Shown here: positions 705 to 44,992 of the stretch, one piece after another | Layout: each line of letters begins with the position of its first letter | Position numbering within the stretch: the stretch's first letter is position 1 | Source of the DNA: Inquilinus sp. Marseille-Q2685 | Lineage (GTDB): Bacteria; Pseudomonadota; Alphaproteobacteria; DSM-16000; Inquilinaceae | Direction of reading: 5' to 3' | DNA: 64,000 bases | Assembly (NCBI RefSeq): GCF_916619195.1 | Contig: NZ_CAKAKL010000008.1 | Coordinates: 186,001 to 250,000 of the forward strand | Notes under the pieces: model-generated | Told to the model about the DNA's origin: nothing | Database searches by the model: none | The model's input: only the letters and a program-made list of their open reading frames with translations | Program-made: the position numbers and the translations under genes

Positions 705-1016
705 ATGACGGCCCTTCCTGACCCCCCTCCGCAGATCGACACGCCAGATCAGAACGACACGGCGGATCGTCGAGCGTTCCTGGCCAAGTGCGGCCGATTT
801 GCGGTCGTGACCCCTCCCGCGGTCACCATGCTCCTGTCGACCAGCCTGAGCTCACAGGCGATCGCACAGTCGGGCGGCCGGGGCGGTCCGCCGGGCCATA
901 ATCCGGGCCCTGGCGGAACACCCCCGGGCCATGGCGGCACACCCCCGGGGCATGGCGGCGAGAATCCAGGCCGGCACGGCGGCCTGTTAGGCTGGCTCCT
1001 GGGCCTGCTGTCCTAG
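705..1016 (+). CDS. Small Tat-like exported protein with Gly/Pro/His-rich tail; candidate substrate of the adjacent kinase cassette
   Basis: 103 residues, family not securely recognised. Residues about 22-35 read DRRAFLAKCGRFAV, a twin-arginine-like n-region, followed by a weakly hydrophobic stretch ending near SSQAIA, a plausible signal-peptidase site. The remaining tail has the repeats GGTPPGH and GGENPGRH, is dominated by Gly, Pro and His, and ends in a Leu/Trp-rich segment with a C-terminal Ser. Start ATG is preceded by AAGGTG. The kinase gene begins 12 bases after its stop, so the two are co-transcribed. Inference: it is the substrate of the PqqD-HprK and nucleotidyltransferase proteins. 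It could instead be a structural exported peptide whose Arg pair is not used by Tat. Confidence 0.6.
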   Translation: MTALPDPPPQIDTPDQNDTADRRAFLAKCGRFAVVTPPAVTMLLSTSLSSQAIAQSGGRGGPPGHNPGPGGTPPGHGGTPPGHGGENPGRHGGLLGWLLGLLS

Positions 1017-1027
1017 GCGTCGCGAGG

Positions 1028-2191
1028 ATGATGCCGTCAGCCGACGAGACCGGCGGAACCGAGGCTGGCCCGGGCGAGGTCGACGCCGCAGGGCCTGCTT
1101 TCGCGGTGATGAACGGCCGAAAGCTGGCGTTCAGCGAGCCGCGGCAGGAGATCTACGAACTGAACGATACGGCGGCCTACATCTGGTACCGCCTGGCCGA
1201 TGGCGACGCGCCGGCGGCCATCATCGACGGCCTGGCCGGACTCGGGATTTCGCCGGAGACCGCGGACGCCTATGTCCGCGACGCGCTGGCCGTCTGGGCC
1301 AGGCTCGCCGGCGCCGGCAGGGCCGGCTTGGGCACGGCAGCCAGAGGCGGTGCGCAGCCTCAGGTCATCCACGTCGCCGGGCTGGTCGTCCGGATTCGAT
1401 ACGACCGCCCGTCCCTGGCGCGGATCGTCGCGCCCGCCTTCGCCCATCTCGCAGCGAAATCCCCCGCCGCGCACGAGGTCGCCCGGGCGGATGTGTCGCT
1501 CGAGATCCTTGCCGAGGGGACCCGGTTCCGATTGCAGGCGGATGGTGTGGGCCTGGACGCATGGGGCCTGGACGAGCTCCTTCCGGCCCTGAAGGCACAG
1601 CTCACCGCGGCTGTTCTGGCCCACGGCCGGTATGCGCTGGCGATCCATGCGGCGGCCTTGGCGCACCGCGATCGCATGCTGCTGCTCGGCGGGGAGGCCG
1701 GGGCGGGCAAGACGACCCTCGCGCTGGCCTTGGCGCATGCCGGCTTCGGCTATGCCGGCGACGACATCGCCCTGCTGACGCCGACCGGCCGGGTGGCCGG
1801 GGTGCCGTTCGCCGCGGCGGTCAAGTCCGACGCCTGGGGGTTGGTCTCGTGGTTCCGGCCGGAATTGGAGACGGTCCGAACCTGCCTGAGATCGGATGGG
1901 CAGCATGTCCGCTATCTGCCGCCGTCCGCCCCTCCGGTGATCGAGCCCCTGCCGCTCGGCTGGGTGGTGCTGCTGCGCCGGCAGCCACGCCGCGCCGCGG
2001 CGTCCCTGGCGCCCTTGGACAAGGTCGACGCGATGCGGATGATCCTGGCTGAGGCGACCGCCCCCGGAGAGCGGCTGCGGACAGCCGCGTTCGGGCAGCT
2101 GGTCCAGGCCATGGCAGGCGCGCAATGCTATGTGCTGCACTATGCCCGGCTCGAAGACGCCGTGCGGGAACTGCAGCGCGGATGCGCCTGA
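1028..2191 (+). CDS. PqqD-like domain fused to HprK-like serine kinase
   Basis: 387 residues. Residues about 24-100 resemble PqqD, the small peptide-binding chaperone of RiPP pathways (the LNDTAAYIW segment matches its conserved core). The C-terminal half is HprK-related: Walker A GGEAGAGKTT at about 221-230, followed by a GDDIALL segment typical of HPr-kinase relatives. Such kinases phosphorylate serine in a protein or peptide; in some lasso-peptide clusters an HprK homologue phosphorylates the C-terminal Ser of the precursor. A fusion of the two functions suggests a recruit-and-phosphorylate enzyme. It lies 12 bases after the small protein and overlaps the nucleotidyltransferase by about 10 bases. 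Exact substrate unknown. Start ATG 1028, with ATG 1031 as an alternative. Confidence 0.8.
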   Translation: MMPSADETGGTEAGPGEVDAAGPAFAVMNGRKLAFSEPRQEIYELNDTAAYIWYRLADGDAPAAIIDGLAGLGISPETADAYVRDALAVWARLAGAGRAGLGTAARGGAQPQVIHVAGLVVRIRYDRPSLARIVAPAFAHLAAKSPAAHEVARADVSLEILAEGTRFRLQADGVGLDAWGLDELLPALKAQLTAAVLAHGRYALAIHAAALAHRDRMLLLGGEAGAGKTTLALALAHAGFGYAGDDIALLTPTGRVAGVPFAAAVKSDAWGLVSWFRPELETVRTCLRSDGQHVRYLPPSAPPVIEPLPLGWVVLLRRQPRRAAASLAPLDKVDAMRMILAEATAPGERLRTAAFGQLVQAMAGAQCYVLHYARLEDAVRELQRGCA

Positions 2192-3234
2192 AGATGCCGG
2201 CATTGAGGGCCCTGATCAGGGCCCTCGACGGCATACCGCCCGATCCCGCGGACTGGCTCGCCGTGATCGAGATCGCCAATCGCTCCTGGCTGACGCCGGC
2301 GGTGTTCCTCGCGCTTGAACGCAGCGGCGCCCTGCCTGGGCAGCCAGGCGAGATCCGCGACTATCTCGGCTTCATCCACGGTCGCAACCGGCAGCGAAAC
2401 CTTCGCCTCCGGGCGCAGCTGATCGAAGCGATCGGAGCGCTGAACCGGGCGGGCATCAGGCCGGTGGCCCTGAAGGGGGCAGGCATCCTGCTCCTGGTGC
2501 CCGATGCCGATATCGGCGCCCGGATGATGAGCGATCTCGACCTTCTGGTCGCAGACGCGGAGAAACCCGTCGCGGACGCCGCTCTCGGGGCGCTCGGCTA
2601 TCAGGCGTCGCAGGATCTGCATGGCCTGTGGCGCTCCGCGGACGCCGGCGTCCTGGAACTGCATTGCCTCAACGATGCGCTGGAGGCCTACGGCGCGGCA
2701 GTCTTCGCAGCGGCGCGATGCTGCTCCGTCGAGCGCGACCGCATCCAGGCCTGGCTGCCGTCCCCGACCTTCCGCGCCGTCCATCTGATCATGCATGACC
2801 AGATCAAGGAGGGTGACTACTGGCGCGGCAGCATCGACCTGCGCCATCTCCGCGATCTCGCCGCGCTGGCGGAGGAGATCGACTGGTCCATGCTCAAGGC
2901 GAGCCTGTCGGCGGCCGGCTGGTGGAACGCAGCCGAGACCCAGCTTCTGACCCTGCACGACCTGTTCGGAGTCGAGGTGCCGGCGGAGCTGACGGGCCGC
3001 CTGACTCCCCGGCTGCAGCACTGGCGGCGGATGGCTCAGATCCGGCATCCGGTCCTCGCGGCACCGCTGCGCTTGGCCGGTGCGACGGCGTGGCTGGCCC
3101 GGCGCATCCGGCTGGGAGACGGGCCTTCGTTCACCCTGGCCGATTTCGCGCCGCGGATCGCACGCAAGCTGCTGCAGGGACGCCGGAGAACCATCGAGGC
3201 CCTGATGGGAGTCCATCTCGGCCCCAAGCTCTAG
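2182..3234 (+). CDS. Nucleotidyltransferase-family protein (NTP_transf_5 type)
   Basis: 350 residues. An LKGAGILLL segment followed by GARMMSDLDLLV at about residue 112 is the signature of this minimal nucleotidyltransferase family, with two Asp residues (DxD) for metal and nucleotide binding. Members occur beside HprK-related kinases and PqqD proteins in proposed modification systems, and some are polysaccharide-linked. The ATG at 2182 overlaps the kinase end; an in-frame ATG at 2125 lies deep inside the kinase gene and is less likely, and ATG 2194 is also possible. The nucleotide transferred and the acceptor are unknown; the small upstream protein is a candidate acceptor. Confidence 0.75.
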   Translation: MRLKMPALRALIRALDGIPPDPADWLAVIEIANRSWLTPAVFLALERSGALPGQPGEIRDYLGFIHGRNRQRNLRLRAQLIEAIGALNRAGIRPVALKGAGILLLVPDADIGARMMSDLDLLVADAEKPVADAALGALGYQASQDLHGLWRSADAGVLELHCLNDALEAYGAAVFAAARCCSVERDRIQAWLPSPTFRAVHLIMHDQIKEGDYWRGSIDLRHLRDLAALAEEIDWSMLKASLSAAGWWNAAETQLLTLHDLFGVEVPAELTGRLTPRLQHWRRMAQIRHPVLAAPLRLAGATAWLARRIRLGDGPSFTLADFAPRIARKLLQGRRRTIEALMGVHLGPKL

Positions 3235-8926: not shown

Positions 8927-10204
8927 ATGAGGTCACGCGACATGCCACTCAGCCCCTTTTCCGCGCCACGCCGGCGCCCGACCCGGGCCCGCCTGGCCCT
9001 GCTGCTCCTCGCCGGCCTGGCGTCGGCCCACCCGGTCGCCGCCATCGCCCAGGATACGCAGGCCTACAAGGTCGGCCCTGGCGACACGCTGGCGATCACC
9101 GTCGCAGGCCAGGAGGGCTTCTCCGGCAAGTTTTCGATCGGGCCGGACGGCAGCATCAACTACCCGCCGCTGGGCGACCTCCGGGTGGCGAAGCTGACCC
9201 CGGGCGAGATCGCCGACCGGATCGGCCAGGGCCTCAGCCAGTATCTTCAGGCCGGCAGCGGCGTGCGCGTCGCGATCGAGGAATACGCCCCGGTGTTCGT
9301 CATCGGCGACGTCGACCGGCCGGGACAATACCAATATCGTCCGGGCATGATCGCGCTGGAGCTCGTGGCCGTCGGCGGCGGGATGCGGCGCGCCCAGTTC
9401 ACCAGCGAGAACGGCACCCTGCAGATGATCCAGACGGAACAGGACTATGCCGATCTGAAGCTGCAACAATTCGCGCTGCAGGTCCGGAAGGCCCGGATCG
9501 CGGCGGAAATGGCCGGTACCGAGTTCAACTATGCCATTCCGGATCATGACGGCCTTCTCGACCGTCCGGCGATGCAGCGGGCCATCGATGCCGAGACCAC
9601 CCGGTTCCGCACCCGCCGGGATGTCCTGCAGAGTCAGGAAAAGGCGTTGATGGATCAACGCGCCAGCTACGATTCCGAGATTGCGGCCCTCGAGCAGAGC
9701 ATCAAGCTCTATGACGAGGAGATGGCGCTGATCGCCGAGGACGTCGCCGCGACCAGGACGCTCGCCGACCAGAAGCTGGTCGTCCAGTCCCGACTGAGGG
9801 AAGTGCAGCGCAGCTATTCCGCGGCCCAGCGGGACGAGCTGGAACACCGGTCCTTCCTGGCGCGAGCGCGCCAGAACCAGCTCGACATCGTCCAGCGCCT
9901 CGTCGAGCTGCATAATCGGCGGGCCGACGAGAATGCGAGCACGCTGCGCGATATCGACCTCGAATTGTCCCGAAACGGGCAGAAGCTGGCGTCCCTGCTC
10001 TCCACCCTGACCGAGTTGAAGCGGCAGGCCGACACTTCGGCAGCCGCGGTGACGACCGTCACGGCGTCCTACACCATCACGCGCGTCGTCGACGGCCAGC
10101 ATCAGCAGATCGTGGCCGACGAGCAGGCAGCGATCGAGCCGGGCGACATCCTTCGCATCGACCAGAAGCTGACCGTCAGCGGCACCCGGGTGAGCCTGAA
10201 CTGA
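8927..10204 (+). CDS. ExoF/Wza-like polysaccharide export protein
   Basis: 425 residues. An N-terminal signal peptide ends near AIAQD; there is no lipobox cysteine, so it is not a Wza-type lipoprotein. The Poly_export domain (YKVGPGDTLAITVAGQ, then SINYPPLGDL) is at about 45-125, followed by an SLBB-like segment (PVFVIGDVDRPGQY), a long central coiled coil (about 220-380) and a C-terminal beta region. Architecture and length match ExoF of rhizobial succinoglycan systems. It should form or gate the outer-envelope export path together with the kinase encoded just upstream. Start ATG 8927; ATG 8942 also possible. Confidence 0.9.
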   Translation: MRSRDMPLSPFSAPRRRPTRARLALLLLAGLASAHPVAAIAQDTQAYKVGPGDTLAITVAGQEGFSGKFSIGPDGSINYPPLGDLRVAKLTPGEIADRIGQGLSQYLQAGSGVRVAIEEYAPVFVIGDVDRPGQYQYRPGMIALELVAVGGGMRRAQFTSENGTLQMIQTEQDYADLKLQQFALQVRKARIAAEMAGTEFNYAIPDHDGLLDRPAMQRAIDAETTRFRTRRDVLQSQEKALMDQRASYDSEIAALEQSIKLYDEEMALIAEDVAATRTLADQKLVVQSRLREVQRSYSAAQRDELEHRSFLARARQNQLDIVQRLVELHNRRADENASTLRDIDLELSRNGQKLASLLSTLTELKRQADTSAAAVTTVTASYTITRVVDGQHQQIVADEQAAIEPGDILRIDQKLTVSGTRVSLN

Positions 10205-34045: not shown

Positions 34046-34568
34046 GGAAACGCCTTTGGTTCGATGACGATATACTTGGCGGCCGACGTGCTGACGCCGG
34101 AAGAAGCCTGGATGGTGCCTGTCCAGCATAGCCAGCCTTCGGCGCGGCCCCCGACGCCTCCATTGGCAGATCCATCTCCCCCGAGCGGCGTAGCCGGCTT
34201 CCTCCGAACGGAGCCGGGCGGCGGCAGGAAGCCTGAATGGTGCCGGGCGGGGGCGCCCCCGTAGAGTGGCCGGCCTGAAGCCGATCGCACATCACGGTTG
34301 TGCACTGCGGTCCGGCTTCCGGCCGCGCCGGCGGAGCGCGGCGTTCGGGACGCCGGCGAGGAAGCGGCGGCAAGACCGGTCGATGCTGCCGGCGTCCCCC
34401 CTCCTCCCAGCTTCCTTTGCTCTGCGATTGCTCTGCGCTCTTCCTCCTACATCCATTGGAGAGGGGGGAAGCGGCCGAAGGGCTCAATCGCGGCGGACCG
34501 CTTTGGCACTGCACAATACGGGTCTCGATGAGCGTGCGGCAGGCCGGACGTCACGAAAGGATGCGGAT
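34046..34568. promoter_or_regulatory. Intergenic region upstream of the giant secreted protein
   Basis: About 520 bases between divergent genes, no convincing gene. GC-rich, not AT-rich as in other gaps here. A 17-base near-repeat (16 of 17 identical) occurs at 34103-34119 and 34228-34244. GAAAGGA at 34555-34561 is the ribosome-binding site for ATG 34569. The promoter of the secretion operon should lie here. Confidence 0.4.
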
Positions 34569-37500
34569 ATGGTTGCGCTGAACACCTCAGCCCGCGATGC
34601 CTTGGCAAGCACCCTCGCTTTGGCAGTCACGGACAGCACAGCCCCCGGATTCCAGGCCTCTCTGCCGGATGCCCCGGCGTCCGACGGGACAGCGGCCGGG
34701 CAGACGGCCGACCCGCTTCTGGCCGGGAACGCCGCCGATCCATCGGCCGCCGCGCCTGCCGTCGTCGAGGACACGGGGGCTGCGGCGGAAGAGCCGACGC
34801 GGGGGACGATCCGGCCCCTGTCCGCCGACGCTCCCGCCGCTCGCCTGCTGGATCCGGGGGCCGCGACGGCGGCGCCAGCCGCCCCTGCAACCACGATGGA
34901 ATCCGCGAACTCGGCCCTGTCGCTGCCTCTCGCGGCCCCGGTCGGCGCGGTGCTGGCCCCGATCGGATCCCTGCTCGACCGGCTGATGCCCGGGGCGCCG
35001 ACCCCGTCCGGGGAGACACCCAGCGTCCCGAGCGAGACGGAGGGCGGCGCCGCATCCATCCCCGCCGACACCGGCCCGCCGGAGCCCCCGACGCTGCTTC
35101 CCCAGACGGCGGCCACGGCGATCAATCCGATCGTCCTGGAGAACCAGAAGACCGGCAATCCGGAGAGCGAGTGGGGCATCGAGGGCAGCGGCAGCGCCAA
35201 TATCCAGGGCTTCGCCACCAGCATCAGCGTCAATCACGGCCAGACGGTCGACTTCAAGATCGCCACGGATTCGACCGACTACCGGATCGACATCTACCGC
35301 CTGGGCTATTACGGCGGCATGGGCGCCCGCAAGGTCGCGACCATCGACCGGCAGCTCACCTCCGCACAGGTGCAGCCGCACCCGCTGGTCGACTACAGCA
35401 CCGGCCTGATCGACTGCGGCAACTGGTCGGTCTCCGCCAGCTGGGACGTGCCCGCCGACGCGGTCTCCGGCGTCTATATCGCCAAGCTGGTGCGAGAGGA
35501 CGGGACCGAAGGCGCGAGCCACATCCCGTTCATCGTCCGCGATGACGAGGCCGACAGCGACATCACCTTCCAGACGTCGGACACCACCTGGCAGGCCTAC
35601 AACGCCTGGGGCGGCGCCAGCCTCTATGGCGGCAACGTGCCGACCGATCCCGCCGACCTGATCGGCTGGACGCCGCCGAACTGCAGTTGCGGCCTGACCG
35701 CGATCGGCCGCGCCACCAAGGTCAGCTACAACCGGCCGTTCATCACGACGGACAGCCCCTATTCGGCCGGGCCGCAGGACTGGATCTTCGGCGTCGAGCA
35801 TTCGGCGATCCGCTGGCTGGAGCAGAACGGCTACGACGTCAACTACATCTCCGGCGTCGACACCGACCGTGACGCGGCGCAGCTGCTGAACACCAAGATG
35901 TTCCTGTCGGTCGGGCATGATGAATACTGGTCGGGCCAGCAGCGCGCCAATGTCGAGGCGGCCCGCGACGCCGGCGTGAACCTGGCGTTCTGGAGCGGCA
36001 ACGAAGTCTATTGGAAGACCCGGTGGGAGACCAGCATCGACGGCAGCGGCACGCCCTACCGCACCCTGGTCACCTACAAGGAGACCTGGGGCGACCGCAC
36101 GGACCCGAGCAACACCGGTACCGGCACCTGGCGCGATCCCCGCTTCGCCGATCCGGGACAGGAGCCCGAGAATTCGCTGACCGGCACGATGTTCACGGTC
36201 GACGCCTATCGCCTCGACACGATCACCATCCCCTACGACTATTCCAACCTGCGGTTCTGGCGGAACACGGATGTCGCCGACCTCCAGCCCGGCCAGACCT
36301 ATTCCCTGGTCCAGAACCTGCTCGGCTACGAATGGGATTCCGACGTCGACAACGGCTTCCGCCCGGCCGGGCTGATCAACCTGTCGCTGTCGACGGTGTC
36401 GGTGGACACGTATCTGCGGGATTACGGCACCAGCGTCGGATCCGCCACCGTCGACCACAGCCTGACCATGTACCGGGCGGAGAGCGGCGCCCTGGTCTTC
36501 GGCGCCGGCACGGTCTACTGGTCCTGGGGCCTGGACGACAACCACGACAACGAAGCGACGCCGGTGGACCGGAACGTCCAGCAGGCGATGGTCAACATGT
36601 TCGCCGACATGGGCATCCAGCCCGGCACGCTGCAGGCCAGCCTGATCATGGCGACGGGCTCGACCGACCATACGGCGCCGACCGCCACCGTGCTGACGCC
36701 GGCGAACGGCACCGGCCTGGTCGAAGGCCAGCGGGTCGTCATCACCGGCACCGCCCAGGATTTCGGCGGCGGCATCGTCGCCGGCGTCGAGGTCTCCACC
36801 GACGGCGGCGTCACCTGGCGCAAGGCGTCGGGGCGGGAGAGCTGGAGCTACGCCTGGAACGCGCAGGCTGCCGGCACCTATGTCATCATGGCCCGGGCGG
36901 CGGATGACAGCGTCAATCTCGGGGCGGCGTCGACGGGCGTCTCGGTCACCGTCACCCTGCCCTCCACGGAAAGCATGTGGACCTTCGCCAACAAGCCGAC
37001 GCAGGTCCATATCCAGGATCGCAACGCCGTCGAACTCGGCATGCGCTTCAGCTCCAACGCCGCCGGCACGATCAGCGGCGTCCGCTTCTACAAGGGCTTC
37101 TACAACCAGGGGACCCACACCGGCAGCCTGTGGAGCGCGGACGGCACCCTGCTGGCCACCGCCACCTTCACCAACGAGACGCTGGAGGGCTGGCAGACCG
37201 TCACGTTCTCCAATCCGGTCTCGATCCAGCCGGGGACGACCTACATCGTCTCCTACCACAGCAACGGCTTCTATTCGGCCGATGCTGGCTATTTCGACGT
37301 CGCCCGCACCAACGGTCACCTGACCGCGCCGGTCGGGGCGGGCGTCTACGCCTATGGTACGTCGAGCCTGTTCCCGAGCAACGTCTTCCAGAACGAGAAT
37401 TTCTGGGTGGACGCCCTGTTCACGCCCGGGCCCGGCGGCGGCAATGTCGCCCCCGTCGCCAACAACGACAACGGCCTCGCCACCAACCAGGGTGTCGCGC

Positions 37501-39788
37501 TGACGGTCCAGGCCGCGACCCTGCTGGCGAACGACACCGATCCCAACGGCGATCCCTTGACCGTCACCGGTGTCGGCAACGCGGTGAACGGCACGGTCAG
37601 CTTCGACAGCCAGTCCGGCGCGATCACCTTCACCCCGACGGCTGGCTACAGCGGCCCGGCCAGCTTCACCTACACCATCTCGGACGGTCGCGGCGGCACC
37701 GCCACCGGGACGGCCAACCTCACCGTCAATCCGCCCGGCACGGGCCTCAGCCTGTGGTCGACCTCGACGACGCCGGGGACGGTCACCGTGAACGACGGGA
37801 GCCCGGTCGAGCTCGGCGTCAAGTTCGTCGCGTCGAGCAACGGCACCATCACCGGCATCCGGTTCTACAAGGGGGCACAGAACACCGGCCCCCACACCGC
37901 CAGCCTGTGGACCGCGACCGGCACGCTGCTGGCCACCGCCACCTTCACCGGCGAGACCGCAACCGGCTGGCAGACCGTCACCTTCGCCAACCCTGTCGCG
38001 ATCAGCAGCGGCACGACCTATGTCGCCTCCTACCACACCAACGGCTACTACTCGGCGGATTCCGGCTATTTCACCGCCAGCTACAGCAACGGTCCTCTGA
38101 GCGCCCCGGCCAATGCCGGCGTCTACGCCTATGGCGGGTCCAGCCTGTTCCCGACCAACAGCTGGAACGCCTCCAACTACTGGGTCGATGTCCTCTACAA
38201 CCAGTCGGGCGGCGCCTCCAACCAGCCGCCGACGGCGGTGGCGGATGACGGCTTCAGCACGGCCCAGAACGCGCCTTTGGCGATCGCGGCCGGGGATCTG
38301 CTGGCCAACGACACCGATCCGAACGGCGACGCGCTGACGGTGACCGGCGTCAGCAACCCGGTCAATGGCGCGGTCAGCCTGAACAGCCAGACCAACACCA
38401 TCACCTTCACCCCGACTGCCGGCTTCACCGGAACGGCCAGCTTCACCTACACCATCTCGGACGGCCGCGGCGGCACCGCTTCGGCCACGGTCGACGTGAC
38501 CGTCCGGCAGGCCGGCGACGGGGTCAGCCTGTTCCTGCCGACCGACACGCCGGCGACGGTGACCGAAGAGGATCCGAATTCGGTCGAGCTCGGCATGAAG
38601 TTCTCGGCCTCCGCCGGCGGCACCATCACCGGCATCCGGTTCTACAAGGGGCCGCAGAACACCGGCCCCCACACGGCCAGCCTGTGGACCGCGAGCGGCA
38701 CCCTGCTGGCCACTGCCACATTCACCGGCGAGACCGCCACCGGCTGGCAGACCGTCACCTTCGCCAACCCGGTCGCGATCAGCGCCGGCACCACCTACGT
38801 CGCCTCCTACCACACCAACGGCTACTATTCGGCCACCAGCGGGTACTTCACGACCTCCCGCTCGAACGGTCCCCTGACCGCTCCGGTCGATGCCGGCGTC
38901 TACGCCTATAGCGGATCCAGCATGTTCCCGACCAACAGCTGGAACGCCACGAACTATTGGGTCGATGTCGTCTACAACCAGTCCGGCACCGGGACGAACC
39001 AACCGCCGACGGCGGTGGCGGACAGCGGCCTCTCCACCAACCGGGACGCCGCACTGTCGATCCCGACCTCGACTCTGCTGGCCAACGACACCGATCCGAA
39101 CGGCGACGCGCTGACGGTGACCGGCGTCAGCAACCCGGTCAACGGCACGGTGAGCCTGAACAGCCAGACCAACACCGTCACCTTCACCCCGACCGCCGGC
39201 TTCACCGGGACGGCGAGCTTCACCTATGCCATTTCCGACGGCCGCGGCGGCACCGCTTCGGCGACCGCCTCGCTGACGGTGGCGCCGCCCCCGGCCGGAA
39301 GCAGCCTGTTCTCGGCCTCGGACACGCCGGCCATCGCCAGCGTCAACGATCCATCGCCGGTCGAGCTGGGCATGAAGTTCCAGGCCGATGTCGCCGGCAC
39401 GATCACCGCCCTGCGCTACTACAAGAGCGCCCAGGACACCGGCACCCATCAGGGCCATCTCTGGACCGCCACCGGTCAGCTGCTCGCCACGGTCACCTTC
39501 ACCAACGAGACCGCCAGCGGCTGGCAGACGGCGGTCCTCGCCCAGCCGGTCGCGATCGACGCGAACACGACCTACATCACCTCCTACCACAGCAATGGCT
39601 ACTACGCGGCCACGCCGAACTATTTCGCGGACGACGTCGTCAACGGCCATTTGCGCGCCCTCGCCGATGCCACAGGCGGCGGCAACGGCGTCTTCGCCTA
39701 TGGCGCCAGCGGCAGCTTCCCGACCGGCAGCTTCAACCGCACCAACTACTCGGCCGATGTCGTCTTCAACCCGCAACTGGCCGCCTGA
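34569..39788 (+). CDS. Giant modular secreted protein: dimethylformamidase-like domain, Ig-like domain, four DUF4082-like and three cadherin-like repeats
   Basis: 1739 residues, no Sec or Tat signal. Residues about 1-180 are Ala/Pro/Thr-rich and probably disordered. About 186-690 resembles the beta subunit of N,N-dimethylformamidase ([29 protein letters not shown]). About 696-797 is an Ig-like fold ([15 protein letters not shown]). Then four DUF4082-like domains (each VELGMKF, G-x-RFYKG, SYHSNG/SYHTNG) at about 800-953, 1058-1213, 1317-1473 and 1577-1739, alternating with three tandem-95/cadherin-like domains ([22 protein letters not shown]). No RTX nonapeptides. The HlyB- and HlyD-type exporter genes follow, so type I secretion is the natural inference. 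Likely a cell-surface or matrix protein. Confidence 0.85.
37743..39297 (+). repeat. Tandem 777-bp coding repeat (DUF4082 plus cadherin-like module)
   Basis: Two successive units, about 37743-38519 and 38520-39297, are in register with a period of 777 bases (259 codons). For example, the GGCACCATCACC segment at 37842 recurs at 38619, and the CTGGCCAACGACACC segment at 38301 recurs at 39078. Nucleotide identity is high including silent sites, indicating recent duplication or gene conversion. Flanking units (from about 36970, and the final domain after 39300) are more diverged. Such arrays change copy number by recombination. Confidence 0.85.
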
Positions 39789-39798
39789 GGGGCGCGGC

Positions 39799-41013
39799 AT
39801 GACCTCTCCGCCGCGCCTTCCCGTCACGGTCCTCTCCGGCTTTCTCGGGGCCGGCAAGACGACGCTGCTGAACCATATCCTGCGCAACCGCGAAGGCCGC
39901 CGGGTCGCCGTCATCGTCAATGACATGAGCGAGGTCAACATCGACGCCGACCTGGTCCGCGACGGCGGCGCCGATCTCAGCCGCACCAGCGAGTCCCTGG
40001 TCGAGATGACCAATGGCTGCATCTGCTGCACCCTGCGCGACGACCTGCTGCACGAGGTCCGCCGCCTGGCCGCCGAGCAGCGGTTCGACTATCTGCTGGT
40101 GGAGAGCACCGGCATCTCCGAGCCCCTGCCGGTGGCGGCCTCGTTCTCCTTCCGCGATGCCGGCGGCGCCTCGCTCGGCGATGTCGCCCGGCTCGACACC
40201 ATGGTCACGGTGGTCGATGCGATCGGTCTGCTGCGGGACTATGCCGGCCGCGACCTGCTGCGCGACCGCGGCCAGGCCGCCCATGACGGCGACGCGCGCA
40301 CGCTGGCCGACCTGCTGGTCGAACAGATCGAATTCGCGGATGTGGTCGTCCTCAACAAGGCCTTCGACGTGTCCGCCGTGGAGCTGGTCCAGATCCGCCG
40401 CATCCTCCGCGCCCTCAACGCCGATGCCCAGGTGGTGGAGGCGGAGTACGGCCGGGTTCCGCTGGACGCGATCCTCGACACCGGCCTGTTCGTGGAAGGG
40501 AAGGCCGCGACCCATCCCCTTTGGCACCGGGAGCTGTTCGGGCCAGGCGGACACACGCCGGAGACGGAGCTCTACGGGATATCGAGCTTCGTCTATCGGG
40601 CCCGTCGCCCGTTCGACCCGGAGCGGCTGGAGGAGTTCCTGGGGCGCAGCTGGCCGGGACTGATCCGGGCCAAGGGCTTCTTCTGGCTCGCGACCCGGCC
40701 GGACTGGATCGGCCAGCTGTCGATCGCCGGCAGCCAGCGCCGTGTCGACGGCAAAGGACTGTGGTGGGCGGCCGTCCCGCCGCAGCACTGGCCGCGCCAC
40801 CCGGACTGGCAAAGCCGGATCGAGCAGCACTGGAGCCTGATCTGGGGCGACCGGCGGCAGGAGCTGGTGTTCATCGGCTGCGGGCATGACGAGGACGCCA
40901 TCCGCCAGGCATTGGACGCCTGCCTCGTTGGCTCCCCGCTCCGTTACGACCGCGCCGCCTATCGCGGGCTGCAGGACCCTTTCCCCGACTGGCAGATCGG
41001 CCACGCCGCCTGA
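39799..41013 (+). CDS. CobW/G3E-family GTPase (metal chaperone type)
   Basis: 404 residues. Walker [10 protein letters not shown] at 14-22, CxCC metal site (NGCICC) at 73-76, [12 protein letters not shown] switch region, and a CobW C-terminal domain ([15 protein letters not shown], then ELVFIGCG). Members such as ZigA deliver zinc or other metals to client enzymes, especially under metal limitation. The usual NKxD guanine motif reads NKAFD, a small departure. It starts 10 bases after the giant gene and precedes the exporter genes, an unusual place; it may load a metal into the neighbouring amidase-like domain or a regulator. No Zur site was recognised. Confidence 0.88.
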
Positions 41014-41058
41014 CGTTCCGTCGATTTTCAGATCACCATTCGCAACGAGGACATGCAT

Positions 41059-41388
41059 ATGCAGACCGAAATCTACGCAGACGGCATCGGCGAAATCACG
41101 GTCACGGGGTCCGTCCTGCGTATCGACCTGGTCAGCCTGTCGGCGACCGAGCGCGATGCCGCCGGCGCCCCCAGGGCGGCGTTCCGGCAGCGGATCATCA
41201 TGCCGCTCGACGGCTTCGCCAACGCCTCGGACCTGATCCAGAAGGTGATGCAAGGGCTGATCGAGGCCGGCGCCATCCAGCGCCGGGCGCCGGAGGCCGC
41301 GGCGCCGGCCGTCGTCGCCGATCGGGCTCCGGTCCCTCCCTCCCCGAACGGCGCTCTCCACCGCAACACGTCGCCGAACTTCGCCTGA
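41059..41388 (+). CDS. Small protein of unknown function in the type I secretion operon
   Basis: 109 residues from ATG 41059 (ACGAGG 8 bases upstream; ATG 41053 is an alternative). The first about 75 residues look like a compact alpha/beta domain (EIYADGIGEITVTGSVLRID, then RIIMPLDGFANASDLIQKV). The rest is Ala/Pro-rich and disordered. No signal peptide. Its stop overlaps the ABC exporter ATG by one base, so translation is coupled. Possible roles are an exporter accessory or a secretion chaperone; this is inferred only from position. Confidence 0.7.
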   Translation: MQTEIYADGIGEITVTGSVLRIDLVSLSATERDAAGAPRAAFRQRIIMPLDGFANASDLIQKVMQGLIEAGAIQRRAPEAAAPAVVADRAPVPPSPNGALHRNTSPNFA

Positions 41389-43583
41389 TGCTTGCCGCGC
41401 CGGACGCCGCGGCCGGAGAAGGCGCACCGGCCGCGGCCGCCGGGGGACGCGACACCGGGCTGTACTGCCTGGCCGTCGTCCTGCGCCACCATGGCTTCGA
41501 CATCTCGGTCGACAGCCTGACCCACCGCTATGCCCTGGGCGCCGAGGCGGTCTCGGCGGCCCTGCTCCTCCGCATGGCGCGGGAATCGGGCCTGCGGGCG
41601 CGCCGGCTGCAGCTCGACTGGGCCGGGCTGGCGCGGCTGGATGAGGCCTTCCCGGCGCTGGCGTTGCTGAACAACGGCAATTGGGTGCTGATCGCCGGCG
41701 TGGTCGCCGACGCCGAGGGACAGGGCGCCGTCCGGCTGCTCGACCCGCTGGCCGAGCGGCCCGAGGCGCTTGTGGTTCCCGAGGAGGCGTTCCGCGGCCG
41801 CTGGTCCGGCGAGATGGTCCTGCTGAAGCGCAGCTACCGCATCGCCGATCCCGACCAGCCCTTCGGTTTCCGCTGGTTCGTCCCCGAATTGCTGCGCCAA
41901 CGCCGGCTGTTCGCCGACGTCGCCGTCGCGGCGCTGTTCCTGTACGGTCTGGGGCTGGCGACGCCGATCTTCTTCCAGCTGATCATCGACAAGGTGCTGG
42001 TCCACAACAGCTACATGACGCTGTACGTGCTGTCGGGCGGCATCGTCGTGGCCCTGCTGTTCGACGCCGTCTTCACCTTCCTGCGGCGCTATCTCCTGCT
42101 CTATGCCACCAACCGGATCGACATCCGGCTGGCGACCCGGACCTTCGCGCATCTCCTGAGCCTGCCGATCGCCTTCTTCGAGCAGGCGTCGGCGGGCATC
42201 CTGGTCAAGCACATGCAGCAGGCTCAGCGGATCCGGGAGTTCCTCACCGGCCGCCTGTTTCTCACGCTGCTCGACGGCCTGTCGCTGATCGTCTTCCTGC
42301 CCGTGCTGCTGATGTACAGCCCCTGGCTGACCCTGGTCGTGCTGTCCTTCGCACTGCTGGTGGCGCTGGTGATCCTGCTGCTGATCGGTCCCTTCCGCAG
42401 CCGGCTGCGCGCCCTGTACGAGGCCGAAGGCCAGCGCCAAGCCCTGCTGGTCGAGACCGTGCACGGCATGCGGACGGTGAAGTCGCTATCGATGGAGCCG
42501 ATGCAGCGCCGGGTCTGGGACGACCGTTCGGCCCAAAGCGTCGCGATGCGCTTCGACGTCGAGAAGATCTCGACCACGGCCCAGTCCGTGACCGGGCTGG
42601 TCGAGAAGCTGATGAGCGTCGCGGTGATCGGGCTCGGCGCCGTCGCGGTGTTCGACGGGACGATGACGATCGGCGCCCTGATCGCCTTCAACATGCTGGC
42701 CGGCCGGGTCTCCGGCCCGCTCGTCCAGATCGTGACGATGGTGCATGAGTACCAGGAGGTGGCGCTGTCCGTCCGGATGCTGGGCGAGGTGATGAACCGA
42801 CGGCCGGAGCGGCACGGCCGGACCGACGGCCTGCGTCCGGCGATCAAGGGGCGTGTCGAATTCGAGAACGTGTCCTTCCGCTATTCCGCAGATGCCAACC
42901 CGGCGCTCGACAACATCTCCTTCACGGTTCCGGAGGGCAGCGTCTTCGGGGTGGTGGGGCGAAGCGGCTCCGGCAAGACCACGGTGACCCGGCTGATCCA
43001 GGGTCTCTACCCGGTGCAGCAGGGCGTGGTGCGCATCGACGGCGTCGACATGCGCGAGTTCGACCTGGTCCATCTGCGCAAGGCGATCGGCGTCGTGCTG
43101 CAGGAGAATTTCCTGTTCCGCGGCACGGTGCGCGAGAACATCGCCGCCGCCCGGCCGGGCGCCAGCTTCGAGGAGATCGTCGAGGCGGCCCGGATGGCCG
43201 GGGCCGAGGAGTTCATCGAGCGCATGCCGCGCGGCTTCGACTCGATGCTGGAGGAGAGCGCCGAGAACCTGTCCGGCGGGCAGCGTCAGCGCCTGGCCAT
43301 CGCCCGCGCCCTTGTGACCAATCCCCGGCTCCTGATCTTCGACGAGGCGACCAGCGCCCTCGATCCCGAAAGCGAGGCCATCATCCGGCAGAATCTGCGG
43401 CGCATCGCGGAGGGGCGTACGGTCATCATCGTCTCCCATCGCCTGTCCACCCTGATGGACGCCAATGCCATCCTGGTGATCGACCGGGGCCGGATCGCCG
43501 ACATCGGACGGCACGACCAGCTGCTGTCGCGCTGCACGACCTACCGGCACCTCTGGACCCAGCAGACAAGGCAAAGCGCATGA
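41388..43583 (+). CDS. Type I secretion ABC transporter, HlyB type with degenerate C39 domain
   Basis: 731 residues. The N-terminal about 130 residues are a C39-peptidase-like domain in which the catalytic Cys position is Thr (DTGLYCLAVVLRHHGF), so it binds but does not cleave the substrate, as in HlyB. Six membrane helices lie at about 175-470. The ATPase domain has Walker A GRSGSGKTT at about 524, LSGGQRQR signature, LLIFDEATSALD Walker B and the H-loop SHRLS. It exports unfolded protein with an uncleaved C-terminal signal, which suits the giant protein encoded upstream. It overlaps the adaptor gene by ATGA. Confidence 0.93.
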   Translation: MLAAPDAAAGEGAPAAAAGGRDTGLYCLAVVLRHHGFDISVDSLTHRYALGAEAVSAALLLRMARESGLRARRLQLDWAGLARLDEAFPALALLNNGNWVLIAGVVADAEGQGAVRLLDPLAERPEALVVPEEAFRGRWSGEMVLLKRSYRIADPDQPFGFRWFVPELLRQRRLFADVAVAALFLYGLGLATPIFFQLIIDKVLVHNSYMTLYVLSGGIVVALLFDAVFTFLRRYLLLYATNRIDIRLATRTFAHLLSLPIAFFEQASAGILVKHMQQAQRIREFLTGRLFLTLLDGLSLIVFLPVLLMYSPWLTLVVLSFALLVALVILLLIGPFRSRLRALYEAEGQRQALLVETVHGMRTVKSLSMEPMQRRVWDDRSAQSVAMRFDVEKISTTAQSVTGLVEKLMSVAVIGLGAVAVFDGTMTIGALIAFNMLAGRVSGPLVQIVTMVHEYQEVALSVRMLGEVMNRRPERHGRTDGLRPAIKGRVEFENVSFRYSADANPALDNISFTVPEGSVFGVVGRSGSGKTTVTRLIQGLYPVQQGVVRIDGVDMREFDLVHLRKAIGVVLQENFLFRGTVRENIAAARPGASFEEIVEAARMAGAEEFIERMPRGFDSMLEESAENLSGGQRQRLAIARALVTNPRLLIFDEATSALDPESEAIIRQNLRRIAEGRTVIIVSHRLSTLMDANAILVIDRGRIADIGRHDQLLSRCTTYRHLWTQQTRQSA

Positions 43584-44992
43584 TCCCGGAGCGATCCGCA
43601 TCGTCGGAGCGCCAGACCCTGCCGGTGGTCCGGGCGCCGACCGTCGCGCCGCTGTCCCGAGCGCATCCGGCCATCGCCGAGTTCCAGCGCGATGCCGTCG
43701 AGCTCGAGGCGCGGGCGCCACCACGGATCACGCGCCTGACCTTGTACGCCGTGACGGCGCTGATCGTCGGCGCTGTGGCCTGGGCCGCGCTGTCCACGGT
43801 CGACGAGATCGTCGTCGCGCCCGGCAAGCTGATCACCACCCAGCCGAACCTCGTGGTCCAGCCGCTCGAGACCTCGGTCGTCCGGTCGATCGACGTCGCG
43901 GTCGGCGAGATCGTCCGTGCCGGCCAGCAGCTGGCCGCCCTGGACACGACCTTCACCCAGTCGGATGTCGAGCAGCTGCGCGCGAAGGTGGCTGCGCTCG
44001 AGGCGCAGATGGGCCGGATCGAGGCCGAGCTCGCGGGGCTGGCCTATGAACCCGCCGCCGATGCCGGCGCGGATGCGCAGCTGCAGATGCGCTTCTTCGC
44101 GCAGCGCAAGGCGGCCTACGAGTCCCAGCTGCGCAATTTCGACGACCAGATCGCGCGCGCCGAAGCCAATCTGGCGGCGAGCCGCGACGAGGAACAGCTG
44201 CTGGCGCAGCGCGTCGCGACCCTCGAACAGGTCGAGCAGATGCGGCAGCAGCTGATGGCCAGCGAAACCGGTTCTCGGCTCAACTATCTCGTCTCCAAGG
44301 ACACGCGGCTGGACATCGAATCCCAGCTTGCCCGGAATCGCGGCATCCAGGCCGATCTGGCCCTGGCCATCGACAAGGCGCGATCGGAGCGGCAGGCCCA
44401 TGTCGAAGAGTTCCGCCGAGCCGCTCTGGAAGATCTGGTCAAGGCGCGCGAGGCCTATGCCGCCGCGGCGGAGGAGCTCAAGAAGGCCGAGCTGCGTCGC
44501 GACATGATCGTGCTGTCGGCCCCCCCGGACGCCGTGGTCCTCGATATCGCGCAACGATCGATCGGGTCGGTGGTGCGGGAGGCCGAGCCGCTGTTCACGC
44601 TGGTGCCGCTCACCGTTCCCCCCGAGGCCGAAGTCTCGACCGCCAGCAAGGATATCGGCCAGCTCGGAACCGACGAGCCGGCCCGCCTCAAGATCGACGC
44701 CTTCCCCTTCCAGAAGCACGGCACGGCCTCGGGCACGGTCCGCACCATCAGCCAGGACAGCTTCGCCTCCAACGCTCGGGACGACAAAGGCAATGTCGAC
44801 GCCTCGGCGCCGCCGGTCTACCGGGCTCGGATCCGGCTGATCGATACGACGCTGCGGTCGGTTCCGGACACCTTCCGCCTGCTGCCCGGCATGACCCTGA
44901 CGGCCGAGATCGAGGTCGGGCGGCGCCGGGTGCTCTCCTATTTCCTCTATCCTCTGCTGCGCGGCCTGGACGAGAGCCTGCGCGAACCGTGA
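43580..44992 (+). CDS. HlyD-family type I secretion membrane-fusion protein
   Basis: 470 residues. One N-terminal membrane helix (about 50-72), then VDEIVVAPGKLITTQPNLVVQPLE, the lipoyl-like entry of HlyD proteins, a long periplasmic coiled-coil hairpin (about 130-310) and a C-terminal beta-barrel with LLPGMTLTAEIEVGRR. It links the ABC exporter to a TolC-type channel. No TolC gene is in this operon; the TolC-family gene at 57469-58938 is a candidate partner. Confidence 0.93.
   Translation: MIPERSASSERQTLPVVRAPTVAPLSRAHPAIAEFQRDAVELEARAPPRITRLTLYAVTALIVGAVAWAALSTVDEIVVAPGKLITTQPNLVVQPLETSVVRSIDVAVGEIVRAGQQLAALDTTFTQSDVEQLRAKVAALEAQMGRIEAELAGLAYEPAADAGADAQLQMRFFAQRKAAYESQLRNFDDQIARAEANLAASRDEEQLLAQRVATLEQVEQMRQQLMASETGSRLNYLVSKDTRLDIESQLARNRGIQADLALAIDKARSERQAHVEEFRRAALEDLVKAREAYAAAAEELKKAELRRDMIVLSAPPDAVVLDIAQRSIGSVVREAEPLFTLVPLTVPPEAEVSTASKDIGQLGTDEPARLKIDAFPFQKHGTASGTVRTISQDSFASNARDDKGNVDASAPPVYRARIRLIDTTLRSVPDTFRLLPGMTLTAEIEVGRRRVLSYFLYPLLRGLDESLREP

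What the first reader, a model, noticed from the sequence alone, without database searches (positions are those of the whole stretch)
705..3234. Compact HprK/PqqD/nucleotidyltransferase cassette with an exported-looking candidate substrate
Seen: three genes in one transcript, 12-base and overlapping junctions, coding for a small exported-looking protein, a single-chain PqqD-HprK fusion and a minimal nucleotidyltransferase. Known: HprK homologues phosphorylate serine, PqqD domains hold peptide substrates, and HprK homologues modify lasso precursors. Inference: this is a modification system for a small protein in which recruitment and phosphorylation are fused, perhaps with a second nucleotidylation step. 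No lasso, sactipeptide or lanthipeptide cyclase is present, so the chemistry would be different from known RiPPs.
Basis: partly seen in the sequence, partly recalled or inferred. Interest (0 to 1): 0.7.

Follow-up and report, generated by a model that had tools for sequence, protein, structure and literature searches.

The report
Putative phosphopeptide gene trio in proteobacteria
Three neighbouring genes, found together in several different orders in a range of proteobacteria, look like a kit that phosphorylates one conserved serine of a small exported peptide and perhaps adds a sugar, a Gram-negative counterpart of a peptide family reported in 2026 from Gram-positive bacteria; no modification has been shown yet.

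Summary
The trio is real: a 103-aa small protein (705-1016), a PqqD/RRE-HprK fusion (1028-2191) and a PF14907 transferase (2182-3234). It is conserved. Of 20 loci with a full kinase and transferase, 17 have the small protein within 1.5 kb, in five arrangements. A profile of the small protein alone found 7 further genomes in a phylum sample; all 7 have the kinase, 6 adjacent. In 42 RR-bearing small proteins the tail varies, but a serine two residues after an Ala-x-Ala site is present in 34, and in 34 of 34 outside four deviant genomes. The kinase keeps the His-Lys-Asp-Asp set of lasso-peptide kinases.

Closest known: Linear Polyphosphorylated Peptides (LPPs) of Bacillota (PMC13381572), with HprK kinase, RRE, NTP transferase and phosphoserine just after the leader cleavage site, often near capsule loci. 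Here the RRE is fused to the kinase, no dedicated peptidase or exporter was seen beside the trio, and the leader resembles a Tat signal. Best reading: an LPP-like phosphopeptide system of Pseudomonadota exported by Tat. No modification is shown. Against: three genomes with the small protein lack a kinase match, and LPP leader motifs are absent.

The parts
705..1016 (+). small protein, candidate precursor/substrate (103 aa): acidic N-terminus, RRAFLAKCGRFA, TPP, AIA, S, Gly/Pro/His-rich tail
768..773 (+). R22-R23, the twin arginines
   Evidence: 13 of 13 in the first set, collected without asking for RR; the later members were picked with an RR pattern, so 38 of 38 is not independent
810..818 (+). 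T36-P37-P38, conserved leader motif (T 37, first P 36, second P 32 of 38); candidate RRE-binding site (inference)
858..866 (+). A52-I53-A54, signal-peptidase-like Ala-x-Ala (A 32 and 29 of 38)
870..872 (+). S56, conserved serine two residues after Ala-x-Ala; predicted phosphoacceptor (inference)
1028..2191 (+). PqqD(RRE)-HprK fusion kinase, 387 aa
1139..1300 (+). PqqD/RRE domain (residues 38-91); best solved relatives of this part of the profile are lasso RREs TbiB1 and TfuB1
1646..1765 (+). kinase catalytic stretch: H207, Walker-A K228, D245-D246
   Evidence: motif as in lasso kinases
2182..3234 (+). NTP_transf_5 (PF14907) putative nucleotidyl/glycosyl transferase, 350 aa; K98-G99 and D118-x-D120 conserved in 8 of 8

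Best explanation
A RiPP-like phosphopeptide system. The N-terminal half of the small protein is at once the recognition leader and a Tat-type signal. The PqqD/RRE domain of the fusion protein captures the leader in the cytoplasm, and the HprK domain phosphorylates the conserved serine (S56) at the start of the tail, perhaps more than once. The PF14907 enzyme then decorates that phosphoserine with a sugar or nucleotidyl group. The modified precursor leaves through Tat, and the housekeeping signal peptidase cuts after Ala-x-Ala, giving a linear peptide (49 residues here) with the modified serine at position 2 and a variable, often Gly-rich tail. Sites beside exopolysaccharide loci suggest a cell-surface or matrix role. 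Shown: the genes, their linkage and co-occurrence, the conserved residues, the absence of a lasso leader peptidase match in the window's genome. Inferred: every catalytic step, the target serine, Tat export, cleavage and the role.
For: Linkage: small protein within 1.5 kb of the kinase in 17 of 20 loci with full kinase and transferase, in five arrangements; among the 13 of these that came in through the kinase (window included) it is 11. Co-occurrence: in 385 class genomes 11 carry the small protein (E<=1e-5), 10 a strong kinase match (E<=1e-45), 8 both, Fisher 6.6e-13; 5 of the 8 supplied rows to the small-protein profile. Without those, 10 of 13 small-positive genomes carry the kinase, against 10 of 385 in the class sample. 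Leader constant, tail variable: T 37/38, P 36/38; the serine is present in 34 of 42 RR-bearing members, and in 34 of 34 outside genomes G094, G307, G683 and G685. Catalysis: H207, K228, D245 invariant and D246 in 12 of 13, matching the lasso kinases' His-Lys-Asp-Asp set. RRE part closest to lasso RREs 5v1u 9e-6 and 6jx3 1e-4; kinase part to HprK 3tqf 2e-6. Precedents: LppK phosphorylates S3 of its core and S3A abolishes it; PsmK/PsmN phosphorylate then hexosylate serine. Internal control: G544 has, besides its fused cassette, a separate locus with discrete PqqD, PF13471, HprK and transferase genes. Negative control: five loci with a kinase domain but no PqqD match have no small protein at E<=1.
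Against: No modification has been observed. Small proteins without a kinase match: G129, G137 and G307 (where only 5 candidates per genome were scored). Kinase present but not adjacent in G373, G724, G094. Serine missing at that place in the four G094 and two G307 members; shifted in G683 and G685. Three further profile matches (two in G588, one in G373) lack the RRxFL part in frame and look broken or degenerate. The RRE motif of LPP/lasso leaders is missing: [YW]xxPx[LVIFAY] in 1 of 38, YxxPxV[LI] in 0 of 38. Tat assignment rests on sequence only; RR could serve RRE binding instead. Deleting lppN changed nothing in the LPP work, so the transferase step is weak even there. No structure could be predicted.
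Confidence: 0.6

Rival explanations
1. Switch, not natural product: the kinase reversibly phosphorylates the small protein to regulate polysaccharide synthesis or export, as HprK/P does with HPr.
For: HprK ancestry; polysaccharide and nucleotide-sugar families are frequent in the flanks (no baseline).
Against: An exported substrate could not be reached again by a cytoplasmic kinase (reasoning); tails vary widely; several loci show no polysaccharide genes close by.
Confidence: 0.14
2. Nucleotidylation: the transferase AMPylates or UMPylates the (phospho)serine and that is the end product.
For: The PF14907 proteins keep K98-G99 and D118-x-D120, a nucleotidyltransferase-type D-x-D (recalled).
Against: The one lasso transferase of this kind with a reported product, PsmN, gives +hexose (its PF14907 membership was not checked here); no solved relative to compare.
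Confidence: 0.12
3. The kinase and transferase act on another molecule (a sugar or lipid), and the small protein is a Tat-exported partner.
For: Frequent polysaccharide neighbours.
Against: A fused RRE implies a peptide ligand; the serine just after Ala-x-Ala is kept while the tail is not.
Confidence: 0.1
4. Chance neighbourhood of unrelated genes.
For: Small-protein genes without an adjacent kinase exist (G129, G137, G373, G724, G094, G307).
Against: Linkage kept through rearrangement and far above base rate.
Confidence: 0.02

Closest known systems
Linear Polyphosphorylated Peptides (LPP; lppA, K, B, S, D, N), Popov et al., Nat Commun 2026, PMC13381572 (abstract, sections 6, 7, 12 and passages seen)
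   Same: HprK-like kinase, RRE, NTP transferase, no macrolactam cyclase in the set; precursor with constant N-terminus and variable C-terminus; serine right after the leader cleavage site; polysaccharide loci often nearby
   Different: RRE fused to kinase; no SpI-like peptidase or MsbA-like exporter seen beside the trio; leader is Tat-like, without YxxPxVL; Pseudomonadota, whereas the paper calls LPP restricted to Bacillota
Pseudomycoidin/paeninodin lasso tailoring (PsmK/PsmN, PadeK, ThcoK; review PMC9266682, passages seen)
   Same: kinase catalytic residues and kinase + nucleotidyltransferase pair
   Different: no lasso leader peptidase match in 16 of 17 cassette genomes; lasso kinases modify the C-terminal serine, here the candidate serine opens the tail
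Bufferins and other MNIO RiPPs (PMC12452194, passages seen)
   Same: an export signal takes the place of a classical leader
   Different: Sec signal and iron enzymes there; Tat-like signal and kinase here
NCBIfam TIGR04352 HprK_rel_A
   Same: kinase domain related (4.4e-20)
   Different: 72 bits against a cut-off of 200; our protein carries a fused PqqD domain

Membership tests
LPP | HprK-like kinase with catalytic residues | tested here: met
   LppK itself not compared by sequence
LPP | NTP transferase in the cluster | tested here: met
   LppN itself not compared by sequence
LPP | discrete RRE | tested here: not met
   RRE is fused to the kinase
LPP | SpI-like leader peptidase and MsbA-like transporter next to the kinase | tested here: not met
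   none among the five downstream genes scanned or, by eye, in 10 kb upstream; among 131 flanking proteins of 16 loci no peptidase S26 is in the 25 commonest of 168 families and 3 match ABC_tran (the other 143 families were not shown). A C39-domain ABC exporter lies 38 kb away at window 41388-43583
LPP | precursor motif YxxPxVLxHQxIxFETxxS | tested here: not met
   YxxPxV[LI] in 0 of 38
LPP | serine just after leader cleavage, phosphorylated | tested here: inconclusive
   serine conserved; phosphorylation and cleavage not testable here
lasso peptides | B2 leader peptidase (PF13471) | tested here: not met
   no match in the window's genome and 15 others of 17 cassette genomes; G544 has two, on another contig than its cassette
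lasso peptides | macrolactam (Asn-synthetase-like) cyclase | not tested
   no whole-genome search; none among the genes scanned beside the trio
PF14907 NTP_transf_5 | Pfam gathering score 31.2 | tested here: met
   104.3 bits
RRE/PqqD (PF05402) | Pfam gathering score 23.4 | tested here: met
   27.9 bits; peptide binding not tested
TIGR04352 HprK_rel_A | NCBIfam cut-off 200 bits | tested here: not met
   71.9 bits
Tat substrates | twin arginine, moderately hydrophobic stretch, Ala-x-Ala (consensus recalled) | tested here: met
   RR 13 of 13 without selection for it; mean hydropathy 0.91 over 22 residues in 38; A at -3 in 32/38 and at -1 in 29/38
Tat substrates | Tat-dependent export | not testable with these tools
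   TatC present in 17 of 17 genomes is only permissive

The most novel reading that the evidence does not exclude
A class of Pseudomonadota RiPPs, with several dispersed precursors in some genomes served by one RRE-kinase, whose leader doubles as a Tat signal and whose phosphoserine is a hook for sugar: peptides joined through a phosphodiester to glycans of the exopolysaccharide.
Probability: 0.12. Interest if true: 0.85.

Novelty: new variant of a known kind. Interest (0 to 1): 0.6.

Why it matters
If right, phosphorylated linear peptides are not confined to Bacillota, the small protein names both substrate and residue for HprK-like kinases whose target is unknown, and a leader that serves as both recognition tag and Tat signal would explain how such a pathway can do without a peptidase and exporter of its own. 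The trio is present in a Sinorhizobium meliloti record, a tractable laboratory species, so it can be tested directly.

Tried and rejected
Lasso peptide cluster: rejected, no match of the lasso leader peptidase PF13471 in the window's genome. Plain HprK_rel_A system: rejected as membership. Kinase-domain-only relatives (L034-L038: genomes G066, G023, G386, G020, G311): no small protein near any of the 5 at E<=1, though L035 is only 4.5 kb. G247 fusion of transferase + PqqD + kinase: first taken as supporting fusion evidence, but its kinase half has lost Walker A and the Asp pair, so it counts as weak support only. Six guessed S. meliloti locus tags (recalled numbers): no paper. TIGR/Pfam-name search: no paper. 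Literature for a proteobacterial counterpart: none recognised from the titles and abstract starts shown (25 of 54 listed; 20 of 325; 10 of 17; 12 of 12); the held library lacks most subscription journals. The primary paeninodin and pseudomycoidin papers are not held; I rely on passages of the review PMC9266682. PDB profile of the transferase: no hit. Structure prediction never ran, so folds rest on sequence profiles.

Rows dropped before counts: five class genomes with small-protein matches between 1e-5 and 1e-3 (G099, G189, G222, G327, G341). Of the 13 plasmid-collection records with a kinase match I opened 4 (H1, H2, H6, H8). Of the 25 loci five are not among the 20: L028 (contig ends; a cut small-protein-like ORF follows), L030 and L031 (one kinase split over two contigs of G382, small protein beside the second piece), L032 (no transferase; a divergent small protein beside it) and L109 (degenerate fusion, no small protein). 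L001 repeats L022. From the flank tally three very long proteins, two window ORFs and ORFs that my rough gene caller missed were left out. The 38 small proteins were picked with a pattern that asks for RR; 7 further profile matches were read, of which 4 bear RRxF (giving 42) and 3 do not.

Full report
What is there. The window lies in an unnamed 7.29-Mb genome (G000); the one named relative found is Inquilinus limosus DSM 16000 (60% identical kinase; a same-genus genome has a like match). At the window's left end are three same-strand genes: a 103-aa small protein, a 387-aa protein with a PqqD domain followed by an HprK-type kinase domain, and a 350-aa PF14907 protein. Upstream lies a 1237-aa gene that I take for a ribonucleotide reductase (by eye). 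Downstream come a Crp-type regulator, galE, a LuxR-type regulator, and Wzc-type and polysaccharide-export proteins, then GDP-mannose dehydratase, glycosyltransferases and a flippase.

Conservation of the trio. The window's kinase as query matches 3 of 17 genomes of the family, G000 included. A 13-row kinase profile gives strong matches (E<=1e-45) in 10 of 385 class genomes; two of those ten deviate (G382 is split over two contigs, and the best G247 hit is a degenerate fusion). Four of 13 matching plasmid-collection records (Ensifer, two Sinorhizobium, Parasedimentitalea) were opened as well. A local profile scan of 25 loci found full kinase plus transferase in 20; 17 of these have the small protein within 1.5 kb of the kinase. 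The orders are small-kinase-transferase (window, L022, L023, L024, L042, L159, L160), kinase-transferase-small (L039, L040, L041, L153), kinase-transferase with a convergent small gene (L026, L027, L029), a small gene divergent from kinase-transferase (L154, L155), and transferase-kinase with a convergent small gene (L158). A link that survives so many rearrangements is most likely functional. The three without it are L025 (G373), L156 (G724) and L033 (G094, a 6.7-kb contig); all three genomes have small-protein genes elsewhere. The genomes of L153-L160 came in through the small protein; among the 13 loci that came in through the kinase the small protein is adjacent in 11.

Test from the other side. 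A profile of only the 43 conserved residues of the small protein was run over 385 class and 398 phylum genomes. In the class sample 11 genomes match at E<=1e-5, and 8 of them have the strong kinase match (Fisher 6.6e-13). Five of those 8 (G000, G102, G200, G360, G395) gave seed rows, so this count is partly circular. The phylum sample gave 9 matches, two of them already known; all 7 new genomes carry the kinase (E 7e-119 to 1e-46), 6 of 7 adjacent. Two of the 7, G683 and G685, lie outside the class but in the phylum. Leaving out seed genomes, 10 of 13 small-positive genomes have the kinase, binomial 4e-14 against 10/385; relatedness is ignored in that number, and four of the 13 (G373, G572, G588, G724) are one genus. 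Against: G129 and G137 have no kinase at 1e-10 and G307 none at 1e-8; they are rated 100, 94 and 83% complete. G137 does have a PF14907 gene on a short contig.

Anatomy of the small protein. In 38 aligned members, 37 unique, F 37, L 35, T 37, P 36 and second P 32 of 38 follow the RR. RR itself was part of the pattern that picked later members; in the first 13, collected without it, RR is 13 of 13. After an Ala-x-Ala (A 32 and A 29 of 38) comes, as a rule, one residue and then serine. With four more RR-bearing members read, the serine stands in 34 of 42. The eight exceptions are the four of G094, the two of G307 (a genome without a kinase match) and the single ones of G683 and G685, which have a serine close by; elsewhere it is 34 of 34. 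Three more profile matches, two in G588 and one in G373, lack the RRxFL part in frame and look broken or degenerate; the G373 one keeps the serine. The tail ranges from a few residues (KSGGKKPK in L023) to over 100 and is often Gly-rich. A constant leader, a fixed serine and a variable tail are what a precursor peptide looks like. Several genomes carry more than one match: G588 six (two broken), G572 and G094 four, G373, G395 and G724 three; the window's genome has a second at C12.

The enzymes. H207, K228 and D245 are invariant and D246 holds in 12 of 13 kinases. A review (PMC9266682, passages) gives His-Lys-Asp-Asp as the catalytic motif of lasso kinases. D246 is E in L028, L033, L159 and L160. 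Profile search of solved structures puts the N-terminal part with lasso RREs TbiB1 (9e-6) and TfuB1 (1e-4), and the C-terminal part with HPr kinases. The transferase has no solved relative in that search. In G544 a second locus has discrete PqqD, PF13471, HprK and transferase genes, a lasso-like arrangement, apart from its fused cassette, so the fusion seems to mark a separate pathway.

How it probably works. I propose RRE capture of the leader, phosphorylation of the serine, decoration by the transferase, Tat export and signal-peptidase cleavage. The first two steps have a direct precedent: in the Paenibacillus alginolyticus lpp cluster, expressed in Bacillus subtilis, LppK puts phosphates on S3 of the core (AQSNWK), and S3A abolishes it (PMC13381572, section 7 read in full; sections 6 and 12 read). 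The third has PsmN, which adds hexose(s) to phosphoserine, although the review notes that nucleotidylation followed by a host glycosyltransferase was not excluded, and deleting lppN had no visible effect. The Tat step is inference from RRxFL, moderate hydropathy and Ala-x-Ala; bufferins show that RiPP precursors can use an export signal as leader (PMC12452194, passages). Polysaccharide linkage: apart from PF14907, the commonest Pfam families of 131 flanking proteins from 16 loci are sugar-nucleotide dehydratase/epimerase families, which overlap on the same proteins (5 of 131 each), with polysaccharide-synthesis families at 3. No random-locus baseline was made, and L022, L024, L027, L041, L158 and L159 show none or little by inspection.

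Compared with what is known. It works like an LPP system but is not an LPP by definition: the RRE is not discrete, no SpI-like peptidase or MsbA-like exporter was seen beside the trio, and the leader motif is absent. The LPP paper says LPPs are restricted to Bacillota; the words proteobacteria, Pseudomonadota and twin-arginine (at word start) do not occur in its main text. Hence: new variant of a known kind.

Confidence. High that the trio is a functional unit acting on the small protein; moderate for serine phosphorylation; low for the transferase's chemistry and for Tat.

Noticed in passing
L099:3781-3987 (G000:C12), outside the window: A second small protein (68 aa, same leader, tail SGGKKGDPPGWSRPKNPH) stands alone in the window's own genome, some 400 bases from a gene that looks like a transposase (by eye).
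   Followed up: partly
tails of 10 of 38 small proteins, e.g. L041:12091-12402, L104:9522-9788: A second shared motif GNNGxGN, often followed by DGxPG or the like, recurs in tails across genera; no explanation.
   Followed up: no
L109:8581-10782 (G247): One 733-aa protein joins a PF14907 part, a PqqD part and a kinase part that has lost Walker A and the Asp pair; an intact kinase with a divergent small protein beside it sits elsewhere (L032).
   Followed up: partly
L106:9427-10338 (G094): Three tandem small proteins share the leader but have Cys-rich tails (such as CEPCSTCTPCD) and lack the serine at the usual place.
   Followed up: partly
L103 and L104, about 9500-10050: Two orphan small-protein genes lie beside apparently phage-like genes (by eye).
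   Followed up: no
L167 and L162:9238-9309 (G588), L171 (G373): Three small-protein matches look broken or degenerate, which suggests gain and loss of copies.
   Followed up: partly
window 34266-44992: A 1840-aa DUF4082/cadherin-like repeat protein, with a C39-domain ABC exporter and an HlyD-type protein downstream; large proteins that look repetitive by eye also lie next to the cassettes in L039, L040 and L153.
   Followed up: partly
window 8927-10204: Export protein with a Poly_export domain followed by an HlyD-like stretch.
   Followed up: no
L041 (record CP090106.1): Record titled pSymB is 3.7 Mb and carries murA, hisD, infA and a Maf-like gene here; it may be a mislabelled chromosome.
   Followed up: no
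G000:C1:243560-244006 (L021): A second, weaker PF14907 match in the window's genome (5.5e-8); the window's kinase as query has its only match in this genome on C8, so no such kinase was found beside it.
   Followed up: no
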